This document shows positions 12,036-20,276 of a DNA stretch of 22,619 nt, piece after piece (positions within the stretch are counted from its first letter, which is position 1; each line of letters starts with the position of its first letter). Where the stretch lies: the IMG/VR virus record IMGVR_UViG_3300034375_010308, positions 1 through 22,619 of that record. One strand, given 5' to 3'. The position numbers were made by a program, and so were the translations under genes. The notes beneath the pieces are model-generated. The model saw only the letters and a program-made list of their open reading frames with translations. It was not told the origin of the DNA and ran no database searches. The DNA comes from a virus.

Positions 12036-12467
12036 ATGGGAAGACCAATTAACAAAAAATATTTCGGACCTCCTACAGCAGCAGGTAATGAAATCAAAGT
12101 AAGATTTTATGATGGTAGCACAGCAAAACCTGGTTGGATTATTAAACAATTAGGAACCAAAAAATTTAGAGTAACTGATGGTGTTACTATTAAAGATTGT
12201 AAACTAGTAACAGAAGATGCAGCTCAAATTAATGCTGAAGGCGAAATGTCTATTACAGTAAAAAATGATGCTGGTAATGCAGTTCAGGTAGCTAAAATTA
12301 CTGCTCATTTAATTGTGGACGAAAATGGACAAACAATTCCTTGGGGATTTGCTGACTTTAATGCTGTTAGTGGACAAGTAGAAATGGAAGAAGCTGGAGA
12401 TGATACAACAATGACTTCAGCTACAAATGATGAAGACGATTTTGAATCTGCAGATCCTGCACCTTAA
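12036..12467 (+). CDS. Probable virion protein MGRPINKKYFG family (143 aa, plus strand)
   Basis: A 143-residue plus-strand gene with a strong AAGGAG ribosome-binding site. The N-terminus MGRPINKKYFGPPTAAGNEI is a pattern I remember from marine T4-like phage virion proteins. The middle is beta-rich (VRFYDGSTAKPGWIIKQLG, KFRVTDGVTIKDCKLVT, ISVTVK-type strands), and the last 25 residues are an acidic Thr/Ser-rich tail (EAGDDTTMTSATNDEDDFES). There is no enzyme motif. It is preceded by a sigma-70-like promoter and a G+C-rich hairpin leader, unusual for this AT-rich genome. Its stop overlaps the UvsW stop tail to tail within TTAA. Being the only G+C-rich-leader plus-strand gene among minus-strand operons, it is probably an independently controlled, well-expressed transcript. 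Confidence 0.82.
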   Translation: MGRPINKKYFGPPTAAGNEIKVRFYDGSTAKPGWIIKQLGTKKFRVTDGVTIKDCKLVTEDAAQINAEGEMSITVKNDAGNAVQVAKITAHLIVDENGQTIPWGFADFNAVSGQVEMEEAGDDTTMTSATNDEDDFESADPAP

Positions 12468-14941: not shown

Positions 14942-15970
14942 TTACCGCTTAATACAAGTACTTTCAGCAAGTGATTGCCATCTGTTAGGATTCATTTTGT
15001 ACAAATCCGCAAGCTTGGTAACCATACGCAAACTTACTTCACGCAATCTACCTGAATTCTTCTGCATAAAGTTTACAATCTCATCTTCACCTTCTTGATC
15101 AATCTTGTAATCTTTAAGCATACCATCAGCAACAATCTGCTTTACACGTAGGATACGCTCACGCATGGTATCCATTGTCAAGTCCAAGTAATGGCAGCGG
15201 CTCATAATAGCTTCCAAGTGGTCCTTGATCTTGCCCTTGGTCTTGTCAAATTTTAGGTTAGTAATAAAAATGATGCTACCACGGAATTCAAACTTTTCTG
15301 GAATTCCTTCTCGGCGCAATGCTGAACTTTCTGCCTTCCAGCTAATCATACGCTTCTTGCCACTGTCTAGAGCTGCTTTCAGCAAATTTAAACTAATTTC
15401 ATCAAACAAAATACTGTCACAGTCATCTAATACCAATACTGACCCTTCATCAGCGTAGCGGAACAACAACATGTACAGCCCAATAGCACTTGCCGCACCT
15501 TTTTCTACACCATATTTTTCTGGTCTACCAGCAAGTTTATCAAACATAGACGCTTTTTCTAGTACCTTCTCAACTCCAAAAGTCTTGCCTACTCCTGGAG
15601 GTCCTGTAACAACCATACCACGTACAACACCATCTACTGATGCTTGTGACATTTCATTCAAAATTTCAAAACGCTCTCGCAAACGCTCAATAACTTGCTC
15701 ATCTGTTTCTTCCACTACTGGCTCCTCAATCTCAGTTGTCTGTAGGGCCATAATATTTTGGGTCATTGCAACATCTCCGGAAACAGTTTTATATCCTTTA
15801 GTGCCTTGTACTTTGACTCGGACAACATCAGCACCAACTTTAATGGTAACAAAACCTGCATAACCTGTCATTGGCTTTGCAAATCTTTTGTAGGGCTTTA
15901 CTAGCTGACCTACAACTCCTGCCATCTGCTGTCCTCTGTAGTTACCTTCAACAATTTGCACCTGTGACAT
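14942..15970 (-). CDS. AAA ATPase conserved in marine T4-like phages (342 aa)
   Basis: A 342-residue AAA-type ATPase. Residues 1-75 are a beta-rich domain (GNYRGQQMAGVVGQLVKPYK, FVTIKVGADVVRVKVQGTKG), residues 80-105 an acidic linker, then the motor: Walker A GPPGVGKT (123-130), Walker B VLVLDDCD (178-185), sensor-1-like IIFITNLKFD, and a late helical lid with arginines (SGRLREVSLRMVTKLADLYK). I recall near-identical proteins in cyanomyophages, of unknown role. It is not gp44 or gp41. It heads an operon with a zinc-ribbon protein, BI-1 and UvsW, has its own strong sigma-70 promoter and an AGGAG ribosome-binding site. Its base composition is unlike its neighbours: 30 of 60 bases at 15181-15240 are G or C. 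High expression or a different history could explain that. Confidence 0.9.
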   Translation of the reverse strand: MSQVQIVEGNYRGQQMAGVVGQLVKPYKRFAKPMTGYAGFVTIKVGADVVRVKVQGTKGYKTVSGDVAMTQNIMALQTTEIEEPVVEETDEQVIERLRERFEILNEMSQASVDGVVRGMVVTGPPGVGKTFGVEKVLEKASMFDKLAGRPEKYGVEKGAASAIGLYMLLFRYADEGSVLVLDDCDSILFDEISLNLLKAALDSGKKRMISWKAESSALRREGIPEKFEFRGSIIFITNLKFDKTKGKIKDHLEAIMSRCHYLDLTMDTMRERILRVKQIVADGMLKDYKIDQEGEDEIVNFMQKNSGRLREVSLRMVTKLADLYKMNPNRWQSLAESTCIKR

Positions 15971-17895: not shown

Positions 17896-18855
17896 TTAAG
17901 AAGCTGATTTACGTTGTCGAATCATTTCCAAAATTTCATTCGCACTAGGCTTGTTATCGCCACTTGTGATTGGTTGTGATTCTTCTTTTTTAGGTTCAGC
18001 AACAGGTTCAGATTTTTTAACAACTACAGTTTCTTCATAGTCACTGTCAGATGTTCCATTTGTTCCATTATCTGTTCTGATTCCTGGAGGAGCGTAATAA
18101 GATGCAAACCTTGCAGGATCATAAAGCTCACCCTGTACACTAGATTCAAACAATTCCATAATCACCTTAAGCTCAGTGTCGCCTGGCTTTTTAGGCATAA
18201 AATCATTTAAATTGTTCAAACCATATTGATCAATAGCATCTCGTTCTACTTGATTAAGTGAACGTTCTCGTCTAGCCCAACTTGATGTTGTATAATCTGC
18301 ATACTGACCTTTCTGAGTTTTAACAAGTTTAAAGTCAGTACCTTGATCAAAGTCAGTAGGCACCTCAACGAAGTCAGGGTCCATAAGTGCTGCTGAAATA
18401 ATCTTGTAGATGCTTGAATTGATGACAAAACGACGAATTGGATTTTCAGGTTCATTCTCTTCCTTGAGAGGGTTTTCTACTACAAATCCTTGAAAAATAT
18501 AGCTCCGCTTTTTCCAATACTTTCTTGCTTCTTCTTCCAACTTAGGATCCTTAAACCACGGACGAATCTCCTGATGAATTGGACAAGTATCTCCCCACAT
18601 TTCTACACAAGGAACTTGTACTGCTACAGGTTTTCTTTCGTCCTGACCCATTACTCCACTAAATGGAATACGAATCATTTGACGTTCTCTCCAAAAGAAA
18701 ACATTTTCTTTATCTGCATCTGGTAAAAATCTAATAGTTGCAGTAGATCCTTCAGGCGCATTCCAAAAAGGAAAAATACTGTTGTCTCCGGAACCTGGAG
18801 TTGCTTGCTGTTGTTGTTGAAGAAGTTTTGCTCGAATTTCTGCTAGTGAGGGCAT
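17896..18855 (-). CDS. 32: Single-stranded DNA-binding protein, gp32-like
   Basis: A 319-residue T4 gp32-type protein that coats single-stranded DNA and coordinates replication, recombination and repair proteins. The N-terminal helix (MPSLAEIRAKLLQQQQQATP) corresponds to the cooperativity domain. The core has FPFWNAPEGSTATIRFLPD and a metal-binding stretch C83-x7-C91-x2-H94 (PCVEMWGDTCPIH), three ligands of the expected four; the remaining ligand is not obvious. RSYIFQGFVVENP follows as in marine gp32 proteins. The C-terminal ~80 residues are acidic and disordered (DSDYEETVVVKKSEP), ending in a short helix SANEILEMIRQRK, the usual partner-binding tail. T4 gp32 is 301 residues. It has its own strong promoter and a remarkable leader (18867-18961), and likely also supplies transcription to uvsX and uvsY. 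Confidence 0.93.
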   Translation of the reverse strand: MPSLAEIRAKLLQQQQQATPGSGDNSIFPFWNAPEGSTATIRFLPDADKENVFFWRERQMIRIPFSGVMGQDERKPVAVQVPCVEMWGDTCPIHQEIRPWFKDPKLEEEARKYWKKRSYIFQGFVVENPLKEENEPENPIRRFVINSSIYKIISAALMDPDFVEVPTDFDQGTDFKLVKTQKGQYADYTTSSWARRERSLNQVERDAIDQYGLNNLNDFMPKKPGDTELKVIMELFESSVQGELYDPARFASYYAPPGIRTDNGTNGTSDSDYEETVVVKKSEPVAEPKKEESQPITSGDNKPSANEILEMIRQRKSAS

Positions 18856-18866
18856 ATTTAATCTCC

Positions 18867-18906
18867 TGTGTTAGCCTATATTAGCCTGTGTTAGCCTATG
18901 TTTGCC
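18867..18906 (-). repeat. Four 10-nt tandem repeats in the gp32 leader
   Basis: In mRNA order the units are GGCAAACATA, GGCTAACACA, GGCTAATATA and GGCTAACACA, directly followed by GGAG, the gp32 ribosome-binding site, in the same register. Units 2 and 4 are identical; units 1 and 3 resemble each other, giving a 20-nt period as well. The repeat has little self-complementarity, so the RNA should be mostly single-stranded, as expected of a gp32 binding site. Confidence 0.9.
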
Positions 18907-18910
18907 TGGA

Positions 18911-18932
18911 TCATGAACACCATTGTTCATGA
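18911..18932 (-). promoter_or_regulatory. Perfect 9-bp inverted repeat at the gp32 transcription start
   Basis: TCATGAACA and TGTTCATGA flank 4 nt. The expected transcription start (about 18928-18930) falls within the first arm, so the full hairpin would not form in RNA from this promoter. That favours a DNA operator, though a shortened stem of about 6-7 bp could still form at the 5' end of the mRNA. Confidence 0.75.
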
Positions 18933-18935
18933 ACT

Positions 18936-18964
18936 ATACTAACAGGGTTTTAACACCCTGTCAA
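18936..18964 (-). promoter_or_regulatory. Sigma-70 promoter of gp32 with inverted repeat in the spacer
   Basis: Minus strand -35 TTGACA (consensus), 17-nt spacer, -10 TAGTAT. The spacer and the end of the -35 hold a perfect 7-bp inverted repeat ACAGGGT-6 nt-ACCCTGT (18942-18961), well placed for a repressor that blocks polymerase. The upstream gene ends at 18981, so this promoter serves gp32 and probably the recombination genes that follow. Confidence 0.82.
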
Positions 18965-18980
18965 TACTTTATTTACAGTT

Positions 18981-20276
18981 TTATGCTGTAAAAAATACTG
19001 ATTCATCAACCATTGCGTTGACGTTTTTCTTAATTTTATTTATCATTGACTCTGATAAATCTCTAGATTTATTTTGCTCATTTACTGTAATTTTTCCTAA
19101 TATATTTTGAATAATAGAATTTTTTTGATCACTATCATACAATGGATAATTTAACGCAATACTTTCTAACATATTACGTTGATCTTCTGCCACTACATGT
19201 TTTGCAAAATAGTTAATCAATTGCTGTGCTTGCAAATCGTTAGACTCAAAAGTAAAATTATTAGGATTGTCTGGATCGTTATTTTTTATTTTCTTTACTA
19301 TAATAGAATTTTCTTCTAATTGTGTCAAGAAATTATTATACAAATTTTGTCTTTTATTTGATTCACTTATTTCTTGTGCAATTTGAGCTACTAATGGTAA
19401 GGTATCTGCAACTGTTTCATCTATTGTTCTAACAGTAAACATTTCTTCTAATTCTGAAGTATCTTGAGTTTCACTAATTGTGGGAGCAAAATTTTCTTTA
19501 GATTCTGAGTAACCTTTTTTAGTTACAATTTTCTTTAAATTTTCTCTCATTTTATGTTTTTTACTAGCACAAGCTTCTATAATATCTTGACTATTTTCAT
19601 TAACTAAATTATTTGTTACACTGTACTTAACAAATCTATTTAAATTATTAATGTTTTTAATTGTTTCAGTAATATGGTTTCCGAAGTCATCGTAAACATA
19701 ACCACCTTCAGAAACGTGTCTTAACATTGCCTTAGCAGCAGTTAAATTGTTAAATGGTAGCTTATTTCTTTCACCATTAGATTCAATAAAAATTTGATGA
19801 ATGTTTCTACTTCTTGATCCACGTAGTTCTTCATTGACTTCCGTTTTATGTTTTATAATTAGTCTAGCAGATTCACAAGTAATGTAACTTGTTTTAGTAG
19901 ATCCAAAAGGTTTTTGAAAAGCTTCGTTTAAATCATTCATAGTATATGTATCCTGTTTTATTCTAAAAGCAAAATCTTTGGGAACTAAATGCCTACCATA
20001 TTGTTTGACTTGCCATTTGTAACCAAATTTTTTAACTGTTTTTTTGATTTTATTGATCATTTCTTTTACATCTTGATAATCAGCTTGTCTACCTAAATAC
20101 ATTCTTACTGACTCTGGTTCTATAATAATCATACTACCAAGATCTGTAATATAAATATGTGCAGCATCCAAAGGATCAACAGTGTATTTTCCTTGATCTG
20201 TAAATATCTTTACAGAATGAGAAAAACTTTTTACTATATCAAAAACATGTTTACTTACAATATCTTGTGCTGCCAT
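18981..20276 (-). CDS. Conserved marine T4-like phage protein downstream of terminase (431 aa)
   Basis: A 431-residue protein, mostly soluble. The first half has mixed strands and helices: PLDAAHIYITDLGSMIIIEP (35-54), then a lysine-rich helix (KEMINKIKKTVKKFGYKW, 71-88). A likely conserved core spans 124-200: FGSTKTSYITCESARLIIKH, NEELRGSRSRNIHQIFIES, AAKAMLRHVSEGG. The second half is helical and charged with long Asn/Glu stretches. I recall proteins with a similar RGxRSRNI..IFxE core in cyanomyophages, location unknown. It is not the tail sheath that follows gp17 in T4. A late-type box GATAAATA lies 19 nt upstream with AAAGGAT between, so expression should be late and a virion role is likely but unproven. 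Confidence 0.82.
   Translation of the reverse strand: MAAQDIVSKHVFDIVKSFSHSVKIFTDQGKYTVDPLDAAHIYITDLGSMIIIEPESVRMYLGRQADYQDVKEMINKIKKTVKKFGYKWQVKQYGRHLVPKDFAFRIKQDTYTMNDLNEAFQKPFGSTKTSYITCESARLIIKHKTEVNEELRGSRSRNIHQIFIESNGERNKLPFNNLTAAKAMLRHVSEGGYVYDDFGNHITETIKNINNLNRFVKYSVTNNLVNENSQDIIEACASKKHKMRENLKKIVTKKGYSESKENFAPTISETQDTSELEEMFTVRTIDETVADTLPLVAQIAQEISESNKRQNLYNNFLTQLEENSIIVKKIKNNDPDNPNNFTFESNDLQAQQLINYFAKHVVAEDQRNMLESIALNYPLYDSDQKNSIIQNILGKITVNEQNKSRDLSESMINKIKKNVNAMVDESVFFTA

What the first reader, a model, noticed from the sequence alone, without database searches (positions are those of the whole stretch)
18856..18964. Gene 32 leader with decamer repeats ending in the ribosome-binding site: candidate autogenous control element
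Four tandem 10-nt units (consensus GGCWAAYAYA) run directly into the GGAG ribosome-binding site of gp32, in register. T4 gp32 is known to repress its own translation by binding cooperatively to an unstructured leader next to its ribosome-binding site. The sequence elements here are unlike T4's, so this would be an independently built version. The identical units 2 and 4, and similar units 1 and 3, suggest selection on spacing. Repeats seen directly; function inferred.
Basis: partly seen in the sequence, partly recalled or inferred. Interest (0 to 1): 0.8.

Follow-up and report, generated by a model that had tools for sequence, protein, structure and literature searches.

The report
Ten-base repeats before phage SSB gene
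Four 10-base repeats run into the ribosome-binding site of this phage's single-stranded-DNA-binding protein gene, and the same repeat, in varying number, sits before that gene in about a hundred related uncultured phages, so it is very likely a real control element through which the protein limits its own production, as in phage T4 but built from different sequence.

Summary
Four 10-nt units (minus strand 18907-18868) run in register into the AGGAG Shine-Dalgarno (SD) of gp32. In 101 leader clusters (250 gp32 leaders, mostly IMG/VR) lag-10 self-similarity is 22.6 SD above shuffles; 128 of 213 core spacings are exactly 10 nt; unit number ranges 0-7 and changed at least 22 times on the gp32 tree. 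Leaders of uvsX, terminase and the upstream structural gene show no lag-10 signal. A scan of 2.9 million viral contigs for two units plus SD gave 157/157 examined sites before gp32. In four long contigs the best site before a gene is always gp32's. The layout recurs: sigma70-type promoter, 5' hairpin with compensatory changes, repeat array, SD. This parallels T4's operator (5' pseudoknot, then UUAAA repeats over the SD), with different sequence and no pseudoknot found. Best explanation: a gp32 autogenous translational operator of new design. Repression by gp32 is inferred, not shown. Weak points: the array is not less structured than its composition predicts, one clade spaces units 12-14 nt apart, and a few other genes carry similar units.

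The parts
17896..18855 (-). gp32 single-stranded-DNA-binding protein gene, 319 aa
   Evidence: PF08804 above cut-off; phrog_1192 E 2.8e-60; fold Z 13.2-13.4 to T4/RB69 gp32 cores
18863..18867 (-). Shine-Dalgarno AGGAG, 7 nt before the ATG; acts as the start of a fifth unit
   Evidence: sequence; AGGA SD found in 99 of 101 leader clusters
18868..18877 (-). unit 4, AGGCTAACAC (proximal unit)
   Evidence: proximal unit carries 12.0 bits across 99 leaders
18878..18887 (-). unit 3, AGGCTAATAT
   Evidence: second unit carries 7.1 bits across leaders
18888..18897 (-). unit 2, AGGCTAACAC
18898..18907 (-). unit 1, AGGCAAACAT
18911..18932 (-). 9-bp hairpin TCATGAACA-ATGG-TGTTCATGA at or across the predicted 5' end of the transcript
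   Evidence: three of ten pairs changed on both sides among 7 relatives, 92% of cells paired, 0/500 shuffles
18936..18941 (-). -10 element TAGTAT (17-nt spacer)
   Evidence: a TTGAC-type promoter is found in 96 of 101 leader clusters, 88 with 17-nt spacer
18942..18961 (-). inverted repeat ACAGGGT-gttaaa-ACCCTGT in the promoter spacer
   Evidence: sequence; relatives have a different but still symmetric repeat there
18959..18964 (-). -35 element TTGACA

Best explanation
The leader is the translational operator of gp32, through which gp32 limits its own synthesis. Transcription starts next to a 5' hairpin (promoter and hairpin seen in the sequence; start site inferred). Downstream lies an array of 10-nt units with core CUAAYA that ends in the SD (shown). 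When gp32 exceeds the available single-stranded DNA it is proposed to load along the array, about one monomer per unit, cooperatively toward the SD, and so block 30S binding; when single-stranded DNA appears, gp32 leaves the RNA and translation resumes (inferred by analogy with T4 and RB69). The number of units, which changes often in evolution, would set the repression threshold (inferred).
For: Conserved register: lag 10 z=22.6; 128/213 spacings exactly 10; last core exactly 7 nt before AGGA in 75 of 98 leaders. Profile aligned on the SD alone: proximal unit AGGCUAAUAU 12.0 bits, second unit 7.1, third and fourth 2.6 and 1.9. Copy number labile, at least 22 changes on the gp32 tree. Largely gene-specific: 157/157 two-unit+SD sites before gp32 (one of them, L107, read by eye); 17 of 18 exact sites in 20 long contigs; best pre-gene site in four long contigs. 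Controls: uvsX (n=120), terminase (36) and the upstream gene (66) show no lag-10 signal and 0.06, 0 and 0.03 GGC[AT]AA motifs per leader against 2.05 for gp32. RNA level: fixed to the SD and the gene's strand, not to the promoter. Layout like T4: 5' part of the predicted transcript structured (mean z -2.17), array not (mean z -0.24); compensatory hairpin changes. T4 and RB69 gp32 repress through a 5' pseudoknot plus a repeat-bearing segment over the SD and tolerate diverged operators (PMC535899). T4 gp32 occludes about 7 nt (PMC10484735), so one monomer could sit on each unit. RegA, the other T4 repressor, is absent from complete cultured relatives, with T4 as positive control.
Against: No binding or translation data exist. 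The array is no less structured than dinucleotide shuffles (0.596 vs 0.599 unpaired). No pseudoknot: only about 2 nt would bridge the stem (sequence reasoning). A 7-nt site size is not 10. Two-unit arrays also precede a few other genes, such as the AAA+ ATPase phrog_1250 in some relatives. L034 and L015 space units 12-14 nt apart, and three clusters have no core in the last 90 nt. Cultured jumbo relatives lack the decamer. The likely start site lies within the hairpin's 5' arm, so the full hairpin may not be transcribed from this promoter.
Confidence: 0.6

Rival explanations
1. Translation enhancer: the repeats are ribosome standby or protein S1 sites, or spare AGG mini-SDs, that raise gp32 output; no repressor is involved.
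For: Each full unit starts with AGG, the last one is the SD, and the leader is A-rich. gp32 is needed in large amounts (general knowledge).
Against: In the second unit AGG is weakly kept (A 67%, G 29%, G 28%) while CUAAYA is kept (C 77%, A 79%, A 80%, A 89%). In four long contigs no other gene has a site of comparable score, although these should include highly expressed virion genes. The array is not unusually open.
Confidence: 0.15
2. The units bind another trans-acting RNA-binding protein of the phage (RegA-like or unknown) that controls gp32 and, in some relatives, a few other genes.
For: Two units plus SD also precede AAA+ ATPase phrog_1250 in L003, L006, L230, L233, L257, and similar units precede a DNA polymerase III alpha-like gene and a small coiled-coil gene in other contigs. 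RB69 RegA selects UAA triplets (reference title in PMC3014915), and UAA is in the core.
Against: PF01818 (RegA) has no match in complete genomes of Atu_ph07, a PA5oct-like phage and RaK2 or in four long contigs, while T4 scores E 2.3e-75; a highly diverged RegA could be missed. RegA has many targets; this element has essentially one per genome.
Confidence: 0.16
3. DNA-level element: transcription-factor sites or replication-origin iterons with about one helical turn spacing.
For: 10-nt spacing is near the helical repeat; tandem short repeats mark some phage origins (general knowledge).
Against: Register is fixed to the SD, the strand is always that of gp32, and the distance to the promoter varies (5'UTR mostly 55-117 nt). 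gp32 does not lie at a cumulative GC-skew extreme in two long contigs, a weak test since they may be incomplete.
Confidence: 0.05
4. Neutral tandem duplication by polymerase slippage with no function.
For: Period-20 duplication in the window; copy number labile.
Against: Units persist in leaders that are otherwise unalignable, with gp32 identity down to about 55%; control genes lack them; the same pattern read backwards gives 4 stretches in IMG/VR against 114.
Confidence: 0.04

Closest known systems
T4 gene 32 translational operator
   Same: Upstream of gp32; structured 5' element, then a repeat-bearing segment that reaches into the SD; core shares UAA; gp32 of the same fold.
   Different: T4 uses UUAA repeats at positions -31, -27, -22, -17 (4-5 nt apart) and a 28-nt pseudoknot (PMC535899); here 10-nt AGGCUAAYAY units and a plain hairpin; no sequence match; own sigma70-type promoter close by.
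RB69 gene 32 operator
   Same: Demonstrates that the operator can diverge while autogenous repression is kept (PMC535899).
   Different: RB69 keeps a predicted pseudoknot and UUAAA/UUAA; about 70% identical to T4's region. This one is unrelated in sequence.
RB49 gene 32 leader
   Same: Reported to lack the pseudoknot (PMC535899, PMC3014915), so pseudoknot-free gp32 leaders were already known; whether they are repressed was left open.
   Different: No decamer array is reported there.
TAACTGA heptamer repeats of Beggiatoaceae and Cyanobacteria (PMC4679880)
   Same: Short tandem direct repeats just upstream of start codons, proposed as sites for an RNA-binding translational regulator.
   Different: Heptamers before 169 gene sets of all functions and mostly without SD; here decamers joined to a good SD and essentially one gene.
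Atu_ph07 gp32 leader (cultured relative)
   Same: A 9-nt repeat (AGCACAATT) ends near the SD of its gp32.
   Different: Different unit and length; lag-9 signal only 11 of 2,000 shuffles, uncorrected for lags tested.

Membership tests
gp32 autogenous translational operator (T4/RB69 type) | Lies in the 5' leader of a gp32-family gene | tested here: met
   PF08804 and phrog_1192 hits; gp32-core fold Z 13.2-13.4
gp32 autogenous translational operator (T4/RB69 type) | Repeat-bearing segment overlapping or abutting the SD | tested here: met
   Array runs in register into AGGAG; conserved in about 100 leader clusters
gp32 autogenous translational operator (T4/RB69 type) | UUAAA/UAAA repeat elements | tested here: not met
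   Units are AGGCWAAYAY; T4's leader has no C[AT]A[AT][CT]A core
gp32 autogenous translational operator (T4/RB69 type) | 5' RNA pseudoknot as nucleation site | tested here: inconclusive
   A hairpin with compensatory changes is present; a pseudoknot with the loop is sterically unlikely by inspection, but no pseudoknot program was run
gp32 autogenous translational operator (T4/RB69 type) | Segment over the SD intrinsically unstructured | tested here: inconclusive
   Not structured beyond composition (mean z -0.24), but not more open than shuffles
gp32 autogenous translational operator (T4/RB69 type) | gp32 binds the leader RNA and represses translation | not testable with these tools
   needs gel shift and translation assays
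RegA target site | Phage encodes RegA | tested here: not met
   No PF01818 match in complete relatives Atu_ph07, PA5oct-like and RaK2, or in four long contigs; T4 control positive. The window's own genome is only a 22.6 kb fragment
Known Rfam RNA family | Covariance-model match | tested here: not met
   No match at gathering threshold in the window nor at E<=1 in 18800-19000

The most novel reading that the evidence does not exclude
A class of phage single-strand-binding-protein operators in which the number of 10-nt sites acts as an evolvable dial: each unit seats one gp32 monomer, lineages add or drop units to set the free-gp32 threshold, and in some phages the same module was copied to a second replication/recombination gene (AAA+ ATPase phrog_1250), making a small gp32 regulon.
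Probability: 0.3. Interest if true: 0.78.

Novelty: new variant of a known kind. Interest (0 to 1): 0.62.

Why it matters
Autogenous control by gp32 is a textbook case, but the two phages examined in the papers found here (T4, RB69) are close relatives, and the papers themselves say that operators in more distant relatives are unknown or lack the pseudoknot and need study (PMC535899, PMC3014915). This element gives a conserved, sequence-defined candidate in a large uncultured jumbo-phage clade. Its natural copy-number series (0-7 units at fixed 10-nt spacing) is close to a ready-made test of how a general single-strand-binding protein recognises its own mRNA and how repression scales with the number of sites.

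Tried and rejected
Pseudoknot like T4's: the loop of the window hairpin (AUGG) could pair with the downstream CCA, but the connecting loop is too short and the pairing is not kept in L257, L214 or L006 (by inspection). RegA as the repressor: no PF01818 match in relatives; the first search had no positive control and was repeated with T4. Replication origin: gp32 is not at a GC-skew extreme in two long contigs (weak). Known RNA family: no Rfam match. Close DNA relatives among cultured phages: none. Greater openness of the array than expected: not found. MAFFT alignment A2 of the second hairpin group was not stem-consistent and was not used. Clade C hairpins were chosen for full pairing, so their pairing rate is circular; only the variety of pair types, and the 65% pairing when arms are swapped between leaders, is informative. 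A PDB sequence search with the gp32 alignment found nothing, although the fold search did. One paper search failed on a too-short term.

Full report
Observation. On the minus strand the gp32 leader reads promoter TTGACA-17 nt-TAGTAT, a 9-bp inverted repeat, then AGGCAAACAT AGGCTAACAC AGGCTAATAT AGGCTAACAC AGGAG-ATTAAAT-ATG. The four units are real and not chance: lag-10 self-match 0.54 against 0.27 in shuffles, 0 of 20,000 as high; TRF calls period 10 and, with a higher score, period 20, so units 1-2 and 3-4 look like a duplicated 20-mer. Elsewhere in the window the motif occurs only with two mismatches, at chance frequency. The gene is a bona fide gp32 by Pfam, PHROGs and fold (RB69 core Z 13.4, T4 core Z 13.2), followed by uvsX and, further on, uvsY, the same order as in cultured jumbo phages.

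Conservation. A protein-based scan of IMG/VR gave 80 relatives, and pattern scans gave more. From 250 gp32 leaders 101 clusters under about 80% leader identity were kept. Across them the mean lag-10 self-match is 22.6 SD above dinucleotide shuffles and no other lag from 3 to 30 exceeds 6 SD; 128 of 213 spacings between successive cores C[AT]A[AT][CT]A are exactly 10 nt; the last core is exactly 7 nt before AGGA in 75 of 98 leaders; 311 cores are seen against 71 expected. The clusters are related, so the z-value is not a probability; the stronger point is that copy number changed at least 22 times on the gp32 tree while spacing and core stayed. A profile aligned only on the SD, with no selection on content, gives AGGCUAAUAU for the proximal unit (12.0 bits) and a weaker second unit in which CUAAYA is kept better than AGG (7.1 bits); units three and four are optional. 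L211 has seven chained cores.

Specificity. A looser two-unit pattern gave 114 stretches; of 83 distinct contexts held, 64 precede gp32 (59 by script plus 5 read by eye), 5 a small coiled-coil gene, 4 the AAA+ ATPase phrog_1250, 2 a DNA polymerase III alpha-like gene and 8 no recognisable gene family. The same pattern read backwards gave 4 stretches. In 20 long contigs 17 of 18 exact single-unit sites are at gp32 (positions compared). In four contigs with 140-243 kb searched, the best site before a gene is gp32's; G022 has one further strong site not followed by an ORF within 130 nt. Leaders of uvsX (120), terminase (36) and the upstream structural gene (66) have no lag-10 signal and 0-0.06 units each, against 2.05 for gp32; the upstream gene shows an unexplained lag-9 signal, z 5.3.

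Anatomy. 96 of 101 clusters have a TTGAC-type promoter, 88 of them with a 17-nt spacer, and a predicted leader that is mostly 55-117 nt long. The part between the predicted start and the array is more structured than shuffles (mean z -2.17, promoter excluded), the last 50 nt are not (mean z -0.24). In the window's own clade the hairpin has changes on both sides at 3 of 10 pairs, 92% of cells paired, 0 of 500 shuffles as high, and slid controls fall to 14-42% (only seven sequences). In a second clade a 6-bp hairpin at the same place has a different stem in nearly every lineage (chosen for pairing, so only the variety of pairs counts). In the window alone the predicted start lies inside the hairpin's 5' arm and would leave 7 of 9 pairs, and the array is not predicted to be unusually open.

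Mechanism. T4 gp32 represses its mRNA by binding a 5' pseudoknot and spreading over an A+U-rich segment with UUAAA repeats that contains the SD, when gp32 exceeds single-stranded DNA; RB69 gp32 does the same on a diverged operator, and either protein represses either operator (PMC535899; PMC3014915). The layout here (5' structure, repeats, SD, gp32) is the same while the sequence is unrelated: T4's leader has UUAA at -31, -27, -22 and -17 and no decamer core. The most likely working is therefore autogenous repression by gp32 loading on the units. The occluded site of T4 gp32 is about 7 nt (PMC10484735), so a 10-nt unit could seat one monomer; this is inference. Steps shown: repeats, register, gene specificity, conservation, promoter and hairpin in sequence. 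Steps inferred: transcription start, gp32 binding, repression, and unit number as threshold.

Rivals. A pure translation enhancer is less likely because distal units keep CUAAYA rather than the SD-like AGG and because no other gene in four long contigs has a comparable site. Another RNA-binding repressor remains possible since a few other genes carry the module; RegA itself is not found in complete cultured relatives while T4 is recovered. A DNA-level role fits poorly with the fixed relation to the SD and the variable relation to the promoter. Neutral slippage is excluded by conservation.

Novelty. No Rfam family matches, and the open-access paper searches found no description of this element; subscription papers were not searched. 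It is filed as a new variant of a known kind: it works like the T4 gene 32 operator, but it lacks the UUAAA elements and no pseudoknot was found, so it is not claimed as a member of that specific operator family.

Noticed in passing
window 18961-18942 (minus strand); L001, L002, L035, L228 promoters: The gp32 promoter holds an inverted repeat whose sequence differs between relatives but stays symmetric (ACAGGGT/ACCCTGT, ACAAAT/ATTTGT, ACAAAATTT/AATTTTGT, ACATT/AATGT, ACAATG/CATTGT). It could be an operator or a read-through hairpin.
   Followed up: partly
L003:6116, L006:3605, L230:4112, L233, L257: Two decamers plus SD precede the AAA+ ATPase phrog_1250 gene, a cluster neighbour of gp32; the window's copy (14942-15970) lacks them.
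   Followed up: partly
L219, L224 (DNA polymerase III alpha-like gene); L203, L206, L208, L221 (small coiled-coil gene): AGGCAAAYAY decamers sit directly before start codons of other genes in contigs where no gp32 was found nearby.
   Followed up: partly
L344:1499 and L345:199, minus strand: A different decamer (CGGATATAAT, 2-3 copies) abuts the SD of a small membrane-protein gene; found only because it matched the backwards control pattern.
   Followed up: no
L293 (Atu_ph07 gp32 leader), 1446-1500: Cultured relative has a 9-nt repeat (AGCACAATT) ending near the gp32 SD; possibly an independent version of the same design.
   Followed up: partly
L034 and L015 gp32 leaders: Three AGGC units before the SD spaced 12-14 nt instead of 10.
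   Followed up: partly
L307 (G022 103353, minus strand): AGGCAAACATAGGCAAACATAG just downstream of a promoter-like TTGACC, with no ORF and no Rfam or tRNA/tmRNA match; possible non-coding transcript.
   Followed up: partly
leaders of the structural gene upstream of gp32 (homologues of window 18981-20276): Lag-9 self-similarity z 5.3 in 66 leader clusters; not examined.
   Followed up: no
window 12036-12467 (+ strand): Lone plus-strand ORF of 143 aa with a clear SD among minus-strand genes; no Pfam or PHROG match.
   Followed up: no
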